Position numbers and translations under genes: made by a program. Source: a virus. Taken from it: 25,432 bases of DNA. The notes under the pieces were generated by a model. That model did no database searches. It worked only from the letters and a program-made list of their open reading frames with translations, and was not told where the DNA came from. Location of the stretch: IMG/VR virus record IMGVR_UViG_3300045119_000039, positions 1 to 25,432 of that record. One strand, 5' to 3'. This document shows positions 11,706 through 19,647 of the stretch, piece after piece. How positions within the stretch are numbered: the first letter of the stretch is position 1; the number at the start of each line of letters is the position of its first letter.

Positions 11706-13259
11706 ATGACGTTATCCGAACGGCATCGCCAACTGAAGCACGAGCGTTCCGAGATCGTGGCGAAAATGGGCGCGATCGTGCGCCAGGACGAGGACGAAAA
11801 CCCGCCCTCGAACGATGAACAAGAAACCGCAATGGGCGCGCTGACGGCGGCACTCGCCGCGCTCGACGCCCGGATTGCCCGCTGTGAGGCGGCAATGCGC
11901 GCCGAGGCGGCGATCGCGACCGCCAACGATGACAACGAGGACGAGGACGACACGACCGAGGAAGCCGCGGCGTCCGGCACCGTGCGGCGCAACGGCAGTT
12001 TCCGCGTCAACGGCAACGGCTCGCCGGCCCGCGCCAAACGGGACTCGCTCGCGGGCTTAAAGGAACCGCGCGGCATCCGGGCATCGCGCTATGTGCTCGG
12101 CCTGCTACATGCGCGCTTCAACCATGTCTCGAACGAAAAAGCCGCGGAATGGGTGTCGAACCGCTTTGGCGATGACATCGTCGCCCGTGCGCTCGTCAGC
12201 AACATCACCGGACAGGGTGGCGCGCTGATCCCGCAAGACTTTATGGCGGACCTGATCGAATTGCTCCGCGCCTCGACCGCCGTCCGCGGCGCAAACCCGA
12301 TGGAAGTCGGGATGCCGATGGGCAACCTGACGATCCCGCGCCTCGCCGGCGGCGCAACCGCGGCGTATCAAAACGAGACTGACGACATCGCCGTGTCGCA
12401 AGAGCGGTTCGACGATGTCAACTTCGTCGCGAAGAAATTGACCGCGATGGTTCCCGTCTCGAACGACTTGATTCGCCGCGCGCCGATCGGCGTCGAGGAG
12501 GTCGTGCGGGATGACCTTGTTCAAACGATCGCGCGCCGGGAGGATCTTGCCTTCCTCCGCGGCAACGGCACCGACAAGGGGCCGGTCGGGATGCGATCTC
12601 TTTGCCTGCCCGCGAACCTCATCACGGTTACGGCGATGCCCGCGACGCCCGCGCCAGGGGATCAGTTGACCGCGATCCTCGCGGGAGCGTCCGCGGCGAT
12701 CCTGGCCTTGCAAAATGGCATGTCCCGCATGATCCGCCCGACATGGATCATGGCGCCGACGATCGCCCGCTTTATCGCAACCGCCCGCGATCAGGTCGGC
12801 GGGTTCTACTTCAAAGACGAAGTCGAGCGCGGGATGTTCGAAGGCTACCCGATCCGCCTCACGCAGCAGATCCCGACGAATTTGGTGATGACGACCTACA
12901 CCAAGGCGTCGGAAATCTATTTCGTCGACATGGCGGATTTTGTGATCGCCGACACATACAACGTCGTCGTCGATGCCTCGGACGTCGCCGCCTACAATGA
13001 CGGCGTCGCGATGGTGTCCGCTTTCCAGCGGGATCAATCCTTGTTCCGCGTGATCGCCGAGCACGATTGCAACATGCGGCACCTTCAATCGCTCGTCGTT
13101 CTGTTGACGCAGGATTGGGCATTCTCGGGCGTTCCGGGTGCGCCCGGCGCGCCGTGGTCGACCCAGCCGCTCAACCCAACGTGGTCGCAAGCCGCCGCCA
13201 TCCGGCCCGCGCTCGCGACCGGGGCGAACGCGCCGCCGACGCTCACCGATCCGATCTAA
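11706..13259 (+). CDS. HK97-fold major capsid protein with N-terminal scaffold domain
   Basis: 517 residues from ATG 11706. The first ~85 residues are a coiled, charged delta domain (TLSERHRQLKHERSEIVAKM, then EAAMRAEAAI) followed by an acidic run (NDDNEDEDDTTEE), which replaces a separate scaffold and is normally removed by the adjacent protease. The HK97 shell follows: GGALIPQDFMADLIELLRAS, TIPRLAGGATAAYQNE, FVAKKLTAMVPVSNDLIRRA, LAFLRGNGTDKGPVGM, then a late DQSLFRVIAEHD. The last ~40 residues form a Pro/Ala-rich extension (VPGAPGAPW and on) beyond the fold. The frame extends slightly upstream inside the protease gene, but ATG 11706 gives the expected N-terminus. Confidence 0.95.
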   Translation: MTLSERHRQLKHERSEIVAKMGAIVRQDEDENPPSNDEQETAMGALTAALAALDARIARCEAAMRAEAAIATANDDNEDEDDTTEEAAASGTVRRNGSFRVNGNGSPARAKRDSLAGLKEPRGIRASRYVLGLLHARFNHVSNEKAAEWVSNRFGDDIVARALVSNITGQGGALIPQDFMADLIELLRASTAVRGANPMEVGMPMGNLTIPRLAGGATAAYQNETDDIAVSQERFDDVNFVAKKLTAMVPVSNDLIRRAPIGVEEVVRDDLVQTIARREDLAFLRGNGTDKGPVGMRSLCLPANLITVTAMPATPAPGDQLTAILAGASAAILALQNGMSRMIRPTWIMAPTIARFIATARDQVGGFYFKDEVERGMFEGYPIRLTQQIPTNLVMTTYTKASEIYFVDMADFVIADTYNVVVDASDVAAYNDGVAMVSAFQRDQSLFRVIAEHDCNMRHLQSLVVLLTQDWAFSGVPGAPGAPWSTQPLNPTWSQAAAIRPALATGANAPPTLTDPI

Positions 13260-13273
13260 CTGGAGCCGGAGCG

Positions 13274-13774
13274 ATGCCCGTTATTGGCCGCGACGACGAA
13301 GTGGTTCAGATCACCGTCGCAACGCAATTCGCCAGCTATTATGCAGGCGAGAAGGCCGCTTTTCTGCCCGAGCAAGCGCAAGCTATCGTGGCAAGAGGAG
13401 TCGGCACTTCGACGGGCACGACCGCAAAATTGACCGGCGGCGCGATCGCGGACGCCGTTGCGCTCGTCGCCGCGCTCAAGGCGATCGCCGATGGCGGGTT
13501 CGCGATCACTATTCACGGGACCGCCCGGCAAGTCGGGCCGATCAATTTCGCCGCGATCGCCGCCGCGCCGGACGCCGCTGCGCTGATAGATGCCGCGATG
13601 GGAACCGCCGCAATTTGCGCCTGGACCGGCGGTAATCATTTCCTGATTACGGGCGCCGCGACGGGACCGGCGGCAACGATCGGTTTTGCCAGCCCGCCCG
13701 CATCCGGAACCAACATTGCGACAACCTGCGCGCTAACCGCGGCGGCGGGCGCCGCGCTTACACAAGGAACCTAA
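13274..13774 (+). CDS. Virion-associated protein with shared module and sheath/fibre-like domain
   Basis: 166 residues from ATG 13274 with GGAG upstream. Residues 19-43 carry a short motif (FASYYAGEKAAFLPEQAQAI, then VARGV) shared with the next two genes. Residues 74-140 (GGFAITIHGTARQVGPINFA, AALIDAAMGTAAICAW, NHFLITGAATGPAATIGFA) resemble the repeated beta domain of DUF3383-type and other phage sheath or fibre proteins. Between them lies an Ala-rich segment around GGAIADAVALV. The location right after the capsid gene suggests a head decoration or head-tail interface protein. That role is inferred, and the exact family is uncertain. Confidence 0.6.
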   Translation: MPVIGRDDEVVQITVATQFASYYAGEKAAFLPEQAQAIVARGVGTSTGTTAKLTGGAIADAVALVAALKAIADGGFAITIHGTARQVGPINFAAIAAAPDAAALIDAAMGTAAICAWTGGNHFLITGAATGPAATIGFASPPASGTNIATTCALTAAAGAALTQGT

Positions 13775-13776
13775 TT

Positions 13777-14283
13777 ATGGCAACCGAGGACGCACCGACC
13801 ACGACCCCGAACTCGATCGAGGGCATTCCGCCACGCGAAACCGTCGTTACCTTTACAACGCATTTCGCCAGCTATAACGCGGGCGAATCGGCGGCTTTCA
13901 CACCGGATGAGGCGCAAAAGCTGGTCGACGAAGGGGTGAGCGTCCTCGGGGGCGGAGCGGACGCCCCGCCGATCAACATCGATGTTCCCTATGCGAGCCA
14001 GCAAGGCGATCTCGTCAACTGCACTATGGGGAACTGGACGGGAGAGCCGAGCGGCTACGCCTACCAGTGGCAAAGCGATGGCGTGGACGTCGGCGAGGAC
14101 ACGCCCTACACGGTGACGGCCGACGATGCCGGAAAGACTTTCACCTGTATCGTGACCGCAACCAATGCCGCCGGCTCGACCGCGGCGCCGCCGTCGAATG
14201 GAGTCGTGATCGTCGCGCCGGCCGGCGACGCTCCCGCCCATACCGCGGCGCGACACGCCACAACCGGACGGAGGGGACGATGA
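13777..14283 (+). CDS. Virion-associated protein with shared module and Ig-like domain
   Basis: 168 residues, starting two bases after the previous stop (ACACAAGGA gives a weak site). Residues 30-54 repeat the neighbour's module (FASYNAGESAAFTPDEAQKL, then VDEGV). Residues 66-145 read as an immunoglobulin-like domain, with PYASQQGDLVNCTMGNWTG, the strand YAYQW, VTADDAGKTFTC and IVTATNAAGS. The Cys pair (82 and 124) and the central Trp fit the Ig sandwich. Ig-like domains on phage capsids and tails aid weak surface binding, so a capsid decoration role is plausible. The C-terminal 20 residues are basic and probably flexible. Confidence 0.65.
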   Translation: MATEDAPTTTPNSIEGIPPRETVVTFTTHFASYNAGESAAFTPDEAQKLVDEGVSVLGGGADAPPINIDVPYASQQGDLVNCTMGNWTGEPSGYAYQWQSDGVDVGEDTPYTVTADDAGKTFTCIVTATNAAGSTAAPPSNGVVIVAPAGDAPAHTAARHATTGRRGR

Positions 14284-14498
14284 CGGATCTTATTCCGGGC
14301 AGCTTGGTACAGATGCGGACCTTGCGCCGCTTCTCGCATTACAACGCCGGCGAAATGATCGCCGTGCCGATGGATGCGGCGCAGGATCTCGCGCGCAAGC
14401 GGCTGGCGCAACCGATCCAAATTCTGGTGCCGCCACAGGTCGCCGCCGCCTCGGATGCCCCGCAGCCGCGCCCGCCAATGGGGACCGTGCGGAAGTAA
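14280..14498 (+). CDS. Small protein consisting mainly of the shared module
   Basis: 72 residues from ATG 14280, overlapping the previous stop (ATGA). Residues 18-42 (FSHYNAGEMIAVPMDAAQDL, then ARKRLA) are a third copy of the module in the two upstream genes, here almost alone and followed by a proline-rich tail. Small phage proteins with a 'Y.aGe....p...A..l...g.A' pattern often occur beside capsid and connector genes. Function is unknown. The head region is the likely place of action. Confidence 0.6.
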   Translation: MTDLIPGSLVQMRTLRRFSHYNAGEMIAVPMDAAQDLARKRLAQPIQILVPPQVAAASDAPQPRPPMGTVRK

Positions 14499-14502
14499 AC
14501 CG

Positions 14503-15135
14503 ATGTATGCCGCCTTGCGGGTCATCACGCCGCCCGCAACTGAGCCGATCACGACCGCCCTCGCGCGCCAGCATTGCCGAATCGACGCCGATTATGACGA
14601 TTCCCTTGTCGCGATGTATGTCACGAGTGCGCGGCTGTGGGCCGAGGCATTCCTAAACCGCGCGCTGTTCACGCAGCACTTGCAATTCAACGTTACCTGG
14701 GCGCCGCCGCCGACCGCGACTCCGCTTGTGCCGCAATCCCTAATCGTGTTTCCGCTCAACTGGCCGCCCCTGGTTAAGCGACCGATCGAGCTACCGCGCG
14801 CGCCCGTGCAATCGGTCGAGCAAATCACCTGGGGGCCGCTCGACAACATGCAGCCGGCCGATCCGGACGATTATCAACTGAACCTGGGAGTCGAGCCGGG
14901 GTATGTCGCGGTCAAACCGCAGCTTCTCCCGCAAATCCCGCAGCAATCGATGATCATCGATTACACCGCGGGGTATGATGACAGCGATCCGGAAGCTGTG
15001 CCGATGCCGATCCGCCATGCAATCCTGCTGCTGACGGCATTTCTTTACGAGCAACGCGGCGACGTCGCCGCCGACATGCCTGCCGCCGCGATCTCGCTCA
15101 TGCAACCTTACCGCCTTTGGACATTCGCGGGATGA
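14503..15135 (+). CDS. Head-tail connector protein, phiE125 gp8 / HK97 gp6-like
   Basis: 210 residues from ATG 14503. The N-terminus has the connector signature: ITPPATEPITTALARQHCRI, then DYDDSLVAMYVTSARLWAEA and FLNRALFTQ. The middle is a beta-rich, proline-containing insertion with PVQSVEQITWG and DYQLNLG, and the end is the helix PIRHAILLLTAFLYEQRGD. Proteins of this family form the ring between portal and tail. The position after the capsid block fits. The stop overlaps the next small gene (ATGA at 15132-15135). Confidence 0.85.
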   Translation: MYAALRVITPPATEPITTALARQHCRIDADYDDSLVAMYVTSARLWAEAFLNRALFTQHLQFNVTWAPPPTATPLVPQSLIVFPLNWPPLVKRPIELPRAPVQSVEQITWGPLDNMQPADPDDYQLNLGVEPGYVAVKPQLLPQIPQQSMIIDYTAGYDDSDPEAVPMPIRHAILLLTAFLYEQRGDVAADMPAAAISLMQPYRLWTFAG

Positions 15136-15382: not shown

Positions 15383-15847
15383 ATGCCCGATAACCCGTCC
15401 GGCGCCATCCCCGGCGTGAGTGGCATCGGTGCCTTGCGCTGGCGCGTCACCCTCTACCGCCGAGATCAGGCTCCGGGGCCGGGCAATCGGATCGCCGAGA
15501 CGCTGGTGCCGATCGCCGTTTGCCAAGCCGACATTCAACCGACCTATCCCTCGACGTTCTACAATTCCGCTCAGATCGACACGCCGATCACGCACCTGAT
15601 CCGCCTACGCTGGGCCGATTACGTCCCGAATGTCTATGTCGTGATGCGGAGCACGCTGCGGCCGAGCGACGGGACCATGCGGACCGAACTTTTCCGCGTC
15701 CGGCGGGTGAAGGAGATCGCCGGCCGGAAGCGCTTCGCCGAACTCGAGGTCGAACTCGAACGCTCGAAAACGACCGACACCGACTCCGATGCTGAGCGCG
15801 AGCAGATGTTCGCCGAGGGCGCCGTCGCCGTGACGCCGTTTCATTGA
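15383..15847 (+). CDS. Head-tail adaptor (SPP1 gp16-like / Phage_H_T_join)
   Basis: 154 residues from ATG 15383. The pattern is typical of head-completion proteins: LRWRVTLYRRDQA near the N-terminus, a strand IPVAV-like PIAVCQADIQPTYPSTFYNS, THLIRLRWADYVPNVYVVM, and LFRVRRVKEIAGRKRFAELE. These small beta-barrel proteins form the stopper ring below the connector. The acidic C-terminus (SKTTDTDSDAEREQM) may be disordered. Its neighbours, the gp6-like connector and gp10-like protein, support the call. Confidence 0.75.
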   Translation: MPDNPSGAIPGVSGIGALRWRVTLYRRDQAPGPGNRIAETLVPIAVCQADIQPTYPSTFYNSAQIDTPITHLIRLRWADYVPNVYVVMRSTLRPSDGTMRTELFRVRRVKEIAGRKRFAELEVELERSKTTDTDSDAEREQMFAEGAVAVTPFH

Positions 15848-15875
15848 CGGCCACACCGGCAGGAAAGGACATCCT

Positions 15876-16043
15876 ATGACCGCAGGCATATGGTTCTGGA
15901 TCCTCTACGTCGTCTCAATCGTGGTCAGCGGCGGCTGGTACTGGCGCACTCCCGCCTCGCAGCCCTATGGCCCTTTTTCCCTGATCTTCTTCATCCTGAT
16001 CGGGCTGTTGGGCATCGGCGCCTTCGGGTCGCCGATCCGATGA
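15876..16043 (+). CDS. Small membrane protein (55 aa)
   Basis: ATG 15876 is preceded by AGGAAAGGA (15861-15869), a good ribosome-binding site. The 55-residue product has two hydrophobic segments, IWFWILYVVSIVVSGGWYW and FSLIFFILIGLLGIGAF, joined by a Pro-containing loop. It is too short to be an enzyme and no family was recognised. The stop overlaps an ATG at 16040 (ATGA), upstream of the Acb2/Tad1-like gene. A superinfection or lysis accessory role is only a guess. Confidence 0.6.
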   Translation: MTAGIWFWILYVVSIVVSGGWYWRTPASQPYGPFSLIFFILIGLLGIGAFGSPIR

Positions 16044-16099
16044 ACGCTCATCGGGACGCCCGCCGCCCGCCGGATCCTCCCCGCGATCGCGAGGAACCG

Positions 16100-16279
16100 A
16101 TGCTGCAATTTTTCGAGTTCGCGCACCTTCCCGCGGACCTTCAAACGGTCAGCGCACCCTTCCATGATCTTGCGATTGAGCTTATGGACACCCTGCCGCG
16201 CAATCCCGAGCGCACCGTCGCGCTGCGGAAATTGCTTGAAGCCAAGGACTGCGCCGTCCGCGCCGCGCTTTACAAATGA
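16100..16279 (+). CDS. Acb2/Tad1-hairpin-like small protein, candidate anti-defence sponge
   Basis: From ATG 16100 the product is 59 residues and has a strong site, GAGGA at 16091-16095. ATG 16040 in the same frame gives a 79-residue form with a Pro/Arg-rich leader. The sequence is a helical hairpin: FFEFAHLPADLQTVSAPFHD, LAIELMDTLP, then NPERTVALRKLLEAKDCAVR and AALYK. This pattern (short aromatic start, first helix, a Pro-Asn turn, then 'ALRKLLEAKDxAVRA') matches small phage proteins grouped with the Acb2/Tad1 hairpin domain. Proven members bind cyclic nucleotides made by CBASS or Thoeris and so block defence. Membership is inferred by eye, and many relatives have no tested function. It is coupled to the next tail gene by ATGA. 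Confidence 0.6.
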   Translation: MLQFFEFAHLPADLQTVSAPFHDLAIELMDTLPRNPERTVALRKLLEAKDCAVRAALYK

Positions 16280-16824
16280 CCGCGCTAAAATTGGAGATCA
16301 CCCATTGGGGCGACGTCGAACTCGACAAAAAGCACCTTCGCGCGCTGATGCGCTCGGCCGCCAACAACATCAAGACGAAAACCGCGCGGCTGATCAATCA
16401 AACGTCCGGATCCGGCCGCATGTACCGCGGCGGCGGCGGCGCCGCCTACCGCGGATCCTACCGTCCCGGCCATTACACCGCCTCGGCGCCGGGTCAGCCT
16501 CCCGTCCGCGTGTCCGGCTATCTCCGGAGTTCGCTGCGCGCCTACGCCTACCCCAGCGGTGAAGGCTTCGCCGTCCGGGAACGGCAATTCTATTCGCTGT
16601 TCCTCGAAAGCGGGGCGCGTGGAGGGGGCAATCCGGGAAGCCGATACGGCGTCCGCGCTCGCCGCAACCTCGCCCGCCGCCGCCGAGTTCAAACCTTTCT
16701 ATCCCGCGTGTTGCTCCCTCGGCCGCACCTAGACCGCGTGATGGAACAGGAAGCCCCCGAACTCGATCGCCGCGTCCGCGAGGCGCTCGATCAATCCCTG
16801 ACTTGGCGCGAAACGAAGAAGTGA
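16276..16824 (+). CDS. Neck/tail-completion protein, HK97 gp10-like
   Basis: 182 residues from ATG 16276, overlapping the upstream stop. A helical start (VELDKKHLRALMRSAANNIK) precedes TARLINQ, a Gly/Tyr-rich loop (GRMYRGGGGAAYRGSY), then APGQPPVRVSGYLRSSL, QFYSLFLESGARGG, and a late RPHLDRVMEQEAPELDRRV. The order 'APGQPP...G.L..S....F...LE.GT' is typical of gp10-like neck or tail-completion proteins that join tail tube and head. Arg content is very high between residues 125 and 145 and may contact DNA. The stop overlaps the next start (GTGA). Confidence 0.7.
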   Translation: MTALKLEITHWGDVELDKKHLRALMRSAANNIKTKTARLINQTSGSGRMYRGGGGAAYRGSYRPGHYTASAPGQPPVRVSGYLRSSLRAYAYPSGEGFAVRERQFYSLFLESGARGGGNPGSRYGVRARRNLARRRRVQTFLSRVLLPRPHLDRVMEQEAPELDRRVREALDQSLTWRETKK

Positions 16825-19103: not shown

Positions 19104-19104
19104 C

Positions 19105-19647
19105 GTGACGCCCGCGAAGCGCGAAGCGTATGACCGATGGTATGCCACGCATCGAGAGGCGTGGCTTGCCACTCGACGCGCCCGCTATGCTGCTGATCCG
19201 ACACCGCATCGTGAACGGGTGAAGGCTTGGCAACAGGCGAATCCCGAACGGGTATCCGCCATCTATCAGCACTTTCAAGAGAACAACCCTGGTTATGCCC
19301 GCTGGCATTATCATTCCACAGAGCAACGCAAGATCGGCCACATCCTGCGAAAAGCTCTTCACTCCGCGCTAATCAACAACCTTAGTCGCCGGGACTGGTA
19401 TCGGAATTCCAAGTTGGGGCCGCTTCTCGGCTGTTCTAAGCCCGCGCTGATCGCGCATATCGAGGCGCAATTTGAACCCGGCATGTCCTGGGAAAATCAC
19501 GGCCGATCTGGCTGGGAAATTGACCATATCCGGCAATGTAATTCATTCGATCTCACCGACCGGAAAGAGTTGGCCGCCTGTTTCCACTACACGAATCTGC
19601 GCCCGCTGTGGCGCGCCGACAACCTCAGCCGACCGCGAAAGGAGTAG
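19105..19647 (+). CDS. Free-standing HNH homing-type endonuclease
   Basis: 180 residues from GTG 19105, whose ribosome-binding site AGGAAG lies within the end of the sheath gene. The N-terminal half has repeated Tyr/Trp helices (AYDRWYATHREAWLATRRAR, YAADPTPHRERVKAWQQANP) of the kind seen before HNH domains in phage homing nucleases. The nuclease part has LLGCSKPALIAHIEAQFEPG, MSWENHGRSGWEIDHIRQC (128-146, His141), FDLTD, and FHYTNLRPLW (160-169) with Asn173. It lies between sheath and tube, which are normally adjacent, and reads less GC-rich than its neighbours. Its last codons cover the ribosome-binding site of the tube gene. It looks like a selfish insertion. Confidence 0.88.
   Translation: MTPAKREAYDRWYATHREAWLATRRARYAADPTPHRERVKAWQQANPERVSAIYQHFQENNPGYARWHYHSTEQRKIGHILRKALHSALINNLSRRDWYRNSKLGPLLGCSKPALIAHIEAQFEPGMSWENHGRSGWEIDHIRQCNSFDLTDRKELAACFHYTNLRPLWRADNLSRPRKE
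19630..19646 (+). repeat. 17-base repeat before the tube gene, copy 2
   Basis: This is an exact copy of 17607-17623 and supplies AAAGGAG for the tube gene at 19653. Here it also encodes the C-terminal residues of the HNH protein, whose stop is at 19645-19647. Confidence 0.8.

What the first reader, a model, noticed from the sequence alone, without database searches (positions are those of the whole stretch)
16100..16279. Acb2/Tad1-like hairpin protein hidden in the connector genes: candidate cyclic-nucleotide sponge against CBASS or Thoeris
Seen: a 59-residue helical hairpin protein with FAHLP, a PRNPERT turn and ALRKLLEAKDCAVR, and its own strong ribosome-binding site GAGGA. Known: verified Acb2 and Tad1 phage proteins are short helical hairpins that bind signalling cyclic nucleotides, with a conserved 'aL.kL.EA...a.' second helix. 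Inference: this one may sequester an immune second messenger. Its place inside the late structural operon would be odd for an anti-defence gene unless it is needed for re-infection or packaged.
Basis: partly seen in the sequence, partly recalled or inferred. Interest (0 to 1): 0.72.

Follow-up and report, generated by a model that had tools for sequence, protein, structure and literature searches.

The report
Phage hairpin protein, likely nucleotide sponge
A tiny phage protein, one of a very common but unannotated family, is a distant relative of the Acb2/Tad1 proteins that phages use to soak up bacterial alarm molecules, so it is probably a sponge for such a molecule, although which molecule it binds (if any) has not been shown.

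Summary
The ORF is real and conserved, but its start is misplaced. Translation most likely begins at ATG 16040 (79 aa), not 16100: an acidic residue sits two positions before the proposed Met in 77 of 80 homologues, and 43 of 80 have no ATG/TTG/GTG there. The protein belongs to a large family (PHROG 1761/5120, "unknown function") found in hundreds of phages. It does not reach Pfam's Acb2_Tad1_hairpin model (PF24729). It is nevertheless a statistically supported distant relative: outside its own two PHROGs the next hit is nearly always phrog_1454, whose members pass PF24729 at 1e-16 to 1e-22; reciprocal profile searches of 19,292 ORFs pair the two families; and its best solved-structure sequence match is "Acb2 homolog 43" (weak, E 0.24). 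The AlphaFold2 model has the Acb2 layout (short helix plus two long helices). Connector genes of related phages mostly abut directly without this gene, and close relatives carry it elsewhere, so it is accessory cargo, not a structural part. Sponge function is the best explanation (about 0.6). Ligand, oligomer and anti-defence activity are untested, and some known ligand-contact positions are substituted.

The parts
16040..16279 (+). Hairpin protein gene, 79 aa: flexible Pro/Arg-rich N-terminus (1-19), short helix 20-25 (QFF motif), helix 32-51, turn PRNP, helix 56-78 (ALRKLLEAKDCAVRA)
   Evidence: Start: ATGA overlap with 15876-16043, conserved acidic residue before QFF, TGATG in L001. AlphaFold2 pLDDT 95-98 over 21-79. 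Family conservation.
16100..16279 (+).
   Evidence: ATG 16100 is probably an internal Met
16091..16095 (+). GAGGA, the proposed ribosome-binding site; also part of the codons for the conserved Glu-Pro
   Evidence: conservation
15876..16043 (+). Small membrane-protein ORF (55 aa) overlapping the hairpin gene by 4 bp; absent from the same junction in L001. Not part of the proposed function
15383..15847 (+). Phage head completion protein (PF05521), left flank of the insertion junction
16276..16824 (+). Tail completion/Neck1-type connector (phrog_879), right flank; ATGA overlap with the hairpin gene stop
   Evidence: sequence
14503..15135 (+). Head-tail adaptor/connector (phrog_442, PF05135), upstream context

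Best explanation
The gene encodes a small, all-helical protein of a widespread unannotated phage family that is a distant sister of the Acb2/Tad1 hairpin superfamily. It most likely works like Acb2: protomers oligomerise through the two-helix hairpin and bind, without cutting, a cyclic nucleotide-type immune second messenger (CBASS di- or trinucleotide, Thoeris gcADPR, or a related signal), so that the host's effector is not triggered. Shown here: the conserved gene, the profile-level relationship, the predicted anatomy, and the accessory (non-structural) genomic behaviour. Inferred: oligomerisation, ligand binding, ligand identity and counter-defence.
For: Profile links: among 38,880 PHROGs nearly every family member tested hits, after its own two PHROGs, phrog_1454 (E 3e-5 to 0.23). 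phrog_1454 is also hit by T4 Acb2 (7e-4) and by the matched segment of PDB 9ptq 'Acb2 homolog 43' (1e-11), and its members pass PF24729 at 5e-16 to 5e-22. The best PDB sequence match of the query is 9ptq (E 0.24). Reciprocal test on 19,292 ORFs: with a profile of PF24729-type sequences, 19 of the 23 hits at E<=1 in family loci are family ORFs by motif (16,727 ORFs, 138 family ORFs), plus one more that the motif missed; with the family profile the first roughly 20 non-family ORFs are PF24729-type, apart from truncated or motif-missed family copies. Divergent family members reach E 0.001-0.015 with that profile. hhalign score 25.1 is exceeded by 0 of 300 column shuffles and 0 of 300 heptad-block shuffles; two undisputed PF24729 groups (actinophage versus T4) compare only slightly better in one common setting (16.1 against 11.5-14.6). 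Shared core seen directly: LPDGPEKSAGLRKLLEAKDC (L240) against IPDGREKSLAITHLEEAMFW (L212). [quoted passage not shown] Context: accessory and mobile. In relative L013 a genuine PF24729 gene (E 3e-8) lies two genes upstream of the family gene, and L015 has the same arrangement.
Against: No tested member reaches the Pfam cut-off, and the best sub-threshold score is E 0.011. The T4-Acb2 profile alone does not find the family. Contact positions are not simply conserved: the position equivalent to T4 T68 is an invariant Arg, and the Arg of the GREK turn is Pro in this family. Foldseek gave no Acb2/Tad1 match, but the bona fide control gave none either, so that is uninformative. The strong conservation across very different hosts could also reflect a protein or nucleic-acid partner. 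No ligand or oligomer was tested.
Confidence: 0.6

Rival explanations
1. Acb2/Tad1-type hairpin, but not anti-defence: it binds another small molecule or nucleotide (for example ppGpp or a housekeeping cyclic dinucleotide) to retune host physiology.
For: Homology gives the scaffold, not the ligand. The contact positions differ from T4 Acb2 (Y8, T68; PMC12657230), and the family is almost unchanged across hosts from several phyla.
Against: All characterised relatives are counter-defence sponges, and accessory, mobile position is typical of counter-defence genes.
Confidence: 0.17
2. A minor virion or assembly component of the head-tail connector, as its operon position suggests.
For: Overlapping ATGA junctions with connector genes in the window; also between capsid and adaptor genes in Gordonia phage DumpsterDude and next to the portal gene in Vibrio phage martha.
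Against: In 25 of 28 related loci holding both flanking connector genes the hairpin gene is absent from that junction, and in 18 of them the two genes abut or overlap. A phage with 82% identical portal has it between terL and portal (L051). Elsewhere it lies beside lysis, replication or early genes, in jumbo phages and in N4-like phages.
Confidence: 0.08
3. A small host-takeover protein that binds a conserved host protein or nucleic acid; the resemblance to Acb2 is shared coiled-hairpin composition.
For: A two-helix hairpin is a simple fold; many invariant charged residues (R63, K64, E67, K69, D70, R74) could bind protein or nucleic acid; the Pfam cut-off is not met.
Against: Matches are specific: phrog_1454 is the recurrent best outside hit among 38,880 families, and shuffles preserving composition or heptads do not reach the observed profile score.
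Confidence: 0.15

Closest known systems
Acb2 of actinophages, phrog_1454 / PDB 9ptq 'Acb2 homolog 43' group (PF24729)
   Same: Short N-terminal helix plus two-helix hairpin; aromatic-rich start, LP-[DEN]-G-x-E-K turn, L-x-E-A in the second long helix; reciprocal profile hits
   Different: First long helix about 4 residues shorter; GREK Arg replaced by Pro; MFWxNAAIAR replaced by KDCAVRA; below the Pfam cut-off
Acb2 of phage T4 (Vs.4, 7uq2) and of Pseudomonas phages (p26, 8h2j)
   Same: Same predicted layout; aromatic at or near the T4 Y8 position; Arg at the AVRA/CRAV position
   Different: No direct sequence significance; T4 T68 position is Arg; the hairpin is much shorter than in Vs.4
Tad1 (Thoeris anti-defence 1)
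   Same: Shares only the C-terminal hairpin domain family
   Different: Tad1 has an N-terminal beta-sheet; the window protein is predicted all helical
PHROG 1761 and PHROG 5120 (unknown function)
   Same: The window protein is an ordinary member (E 1e-29 and 8e-20)
   Different: No function annotated there

Membership tests
Acb2/Tad1 hairpin domain (PF24729) | Score above the curated Pfam cut-off (27 bits) | tested here: not met
   No hit for the window protein or for 73 members; best sub-threshold member 16.4 bits, E 0.011; T4 Acb2 scores 71.4
Acb2/Tad1 hairpin superfamily (distant relationship) | Significant reciprocal profile similarity | tested here: met
[quoted passage not shown]
   Model with pLDDT 95-98; control PF24729 member gives the same elements; description from PMC12043709. 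Comparison is by secondary-structure order; coordinates were not superposed
Acb2 | Ligand-contact residues (T4 Y8 and T68; PMC12657230) | tested here: inconclusive
   Aromatic at core position 7 in 77 of 80 homologues, aligned by hand with T4 Y8; T68 position is an invariant Arg; GREK Arg is Pro
Acb2 | Fold match to solved Acb2/Tad1 chains | tested here: inconclusive
   Foldseek and VIA-align list none; the bona fide control also found none
Acb2 | Hexamer with pockets between protomers | not testable with these tools
   Only monomer prediction available
Acb2 | Binds cyclic di- and trinucleotides and blocks CBASS | not testable with these tools
   Needs biochemistry and phage assays
Tad1 | N-terminal antiparallel beta-sheet before the hairpin | tested here: not met
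   Predicted all helical, first 19 residues low confidence
Head-tail connector component | Present at the connector junction in phages with the same flanking genes | tested here: not met
   Absent in 25 of 28 related loci, 18 of them with abutting or overlapping flanks

The most novel reading that the evidence does not exclude
The PHROG 1761/5120 family is a large, unrecognised class of phage sponges, sister to Acb2/Tad1, with altered pocket chemistry (Arg at the T4 T68 position, Pro in the GREK turn) and hence a different or broader ligand, carried by hundreds of phages of many bacterial phyla and sometimes in tandem with a classical Acb2-type gene.
Probability: 0.45. Interest if true: 0.78.

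Novelty: new variant of a known kind. Interest (0 to 1): 0.58.

Why it matters
It gives a small, directly testable set of proteins, and natural pairs with classical Acb2-type genes in which to ask how ligand specificity divides.

Tried and rejected
Pfam, NCBIfam: nothing above cut-off. The NCBIfam DPS hits (E 0.03) and the PDB profile hits to designed helical repeats and PAS20 were rejected as short helical or compositional matches. Foldseek/VIA-align on the model: only generic helical hairpins, no Acb2/Tad1 listed; a control model of a true PF24729 protein failed in the same way, so the absence is not evidence.

T4-Acb2 profile alone: no link. Association with the small membrane ORF: rejected as general, 6 of 132 loci against 23 of 1009 control genes, and relatives have such an ORF at the junction without the hairpin gene. 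PF24729 in six bacterial genomes carrying the family: nothing rang, uninformative. Literature on Acb2 contact mutants beyond T4 Y8A and T68M, and on 9ptq, was not found in the open library.

Full report
1. The observation. Window 16100-16279 encodes the reported 59 residues with FAHLP, PRNPERT and ALRKLLEAKDCAVR, and GAGGA lies at 16091-16095. The consensus is QFFxYxHLPxxLQxVSxPFxxLAxxIVxTLPRNPERTVALRKLLEAKDCAVRA.

2. The start is probably 16040. At the proposed Met, 43 of 80 homologues have a codon that is not ATG, TTG or GTG, and position -2 is acidic in 77 of 80, mostly as Glu-Pro. In the window the next in-frame ATG upstream is 16040, in an ATGA overlap with the stop of ORF 15876-16043. 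In the closest relative, L001, the preceding head-completion gene ends in TGATG at the equivalent codon, and the 21-residue N-terminal extension is conserved with an in-frame indel. The product is then 79 aa. The hairpin gene also overlaps the next gene by ATGA (16276-16279).

3. What family it is. It belongs to PHROG 1761 and PHROG 5120, both of unknown function. Pfam gives nothing for it or, at any meaningful level, for 73 members, whereas T4 Acb2 (Vs.4) hits PF24729 Acb2_Tad1_hairpin at 7e-20. The next family after its own two PHROGs is phrog_1454. phrog_1454 is hit by T4 Acb2 (7e-4) and by the aligned segment of PDB 9ptq, deposited as 'Acb2 homolog 43' (1e-11); its actinophage members pass PF24729 at 5e-16 to 5e-22, and one also matches Tad1 chains weakly. 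The published cluster E mycobacteriophage 'CBASS antagonist' annotation (PMC11953737) appears to concern the same group. 9ptq is also the best PDB sequence match of the window protein itself, at a non-significant E of 0.24.

4. Testing the link. I collected 19,292 ORFs from the loci then held and searched them with profiles of each side. With the PF24729-type profile, 19 of 23 hits at E<=1 within the family's loci are family ORFs by motif (138 family ORFs among 16,727; a further one is a family ORF the motif missed). Of the other three, two (L013, L015) are a second Acb2-type gene that passes PF24729 in L013, and one (L002) is an unconfirmed candidate. In reverse, apart from motif-missed or truncated family copies, the family's profile ranks PF24729-type ORFs next, about twenty in succession. 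The enrichment p-value (6e-37) overstates the case because family members are not independent. Divergent members, several of which carry LPDGPEKS in place of LPRNPERT, reach E 0.001-0.015. Profile-profile comparison scores 25.1 (local mode) and is not reached by any of 300 column shuffles or 300 heptad-block shuffles; with a second, more mixed PF24729 alignment 1 of 300 column shuffles reached it. Two accepted PF24729 groups compare at a similarly weak level. Sub-threshold PF24729 hits appear for several divergent members (E 0.011-0.17). I take distant homology as likely (about 0.85), but not membership of the curated family.

5. Structure. AlphaFold2 with 73 sequences gives pLDDT 95-98 over residues 21-79: helix 20-25, helix 32-51, a four-residue turn, helix 56-78. 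A bona fide PF24729 sequence (L198) modelled in the same way gives helices 3-9, 18-41 and 46-68. Both match the published description of the Acb2 protomer (PMC12043709). Coordinates could not be superposed here. Foldseek did not list Acb2 or Tad1 for either model, so its silence says nothing.

6. Pocket residues. With the third helix aligned from the turn (my reading), the T4 T68 position, where T68M weakens binding (PMC12657230), is the invariant Arg 63. The Arg of the GREK turn is Pro 56. Arg 74 coincides with the Arg of T4 CRAV and of the Tad1 NRR motif. T4 Y8 (binding-dead as Y8A, PMC12657230) falls near core position 7, aromatic in 77 of 80 homologues. This is compatible with a related pocket of different specificity; it does not prove one. 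From memory, Pseudomonas Acb2 residues Y11, K26 and R67 contact ligands; I could not confirm this in the open library.

7. Context. The gene is not a fixed structural part. Among 28 related loci that hold both flanking connector genes, only 3 have the hairpin gene between them; in 18 the two genes abut or overlap, and in 7 a 94-173 base gap without it remains (some of these loci are copies of one phage). One such phage (L070/L262, same contig) carries the gene upstream of terL; another (L051, portal 82% identical to the window's) has it between terL and portal. Across phages it lies beside capsid genes, portal, holin and endolysin, replication or DNA-repair genes, in jumbo phages and in an N4-like phage. 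In L013 the order is a large probable capsid gene, a hypothetical gene, a PF24729 gene, a small membrane gene, then the family gene.

8. Mechanism. Inferred steps: expression with the late operon, oligomerisation through the hairpin, capture of a negatively charged cyclic nucleotide by conserved basic residues (R63, K64, K69, R74), and silence of the host effector. The extreme conservation across hosts fits a small-molecule ligand, which cannot evolve away, better than a host protein; this is an argument, not a test. Ligand identity is open.

9. Verdict. An accessory phage gene of a large unannotated family, distantly related to Acb2/Tad1, probably a nucleotide sponge (0.6). Observation partly confirmed, interpretation partly supported, novelty a new variant of a known kind.

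Noticed in passing
L013:4595-4816 and L015 (about 2003-2224): A PF24729 (Acb2/Tad1 hairpin) gene, E 3e-8 in L013, directly followed by a small membrane gene and then the window-family gene: two sponge-type genes in one cassette. L002:4669-4980 holds another candidate.
   Followed up: partly
L235:2746-3180 (Erwinia phage pEa_SNUABM_1): Family hairpin fused behind a P-loop-like N-terminal domain (GDVGSGKS, weak NTPase/kinase Pfam matches); PHROG 1761 is about 148 aa long, so such N-terminal extensions may be common.
   Followed up: no
window 13226-14498: Three consecutive short genes after the major capsid gene share an N-terminal motif like F-x-S/H-Y-N/Y-A-G-E-x-A-x-F-x-x-x-x-A-Q-x-L/I-V, as if duplicated; the second also carries an Ig-like region.
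   Followed up: no
window about 19104-19647: An HNH-endonuclease-like ORF sits between tail sheath and tail tube; in relative L245 sheath and tube are only about 18 bases apart, so this looks like an inserted homing-type gene.
   Followed up: partly
window 15847-16276; L247, L255, L268-L271: The junction between head-completion and Neck1-type genes is a variable cargo site: empty, small membrane ORF only, hairpin only, or both.
   Followed up: yes
L274, L275, L278 (Mycobacterium phages Nigel, Lolalove, JAMaL): Cluster B mycobacteriophage proteins with GPELAAGLRKLLEAKDCFVRQALL are divergent members of the same family with a rewritten N-terminus.
   Followed up: partly
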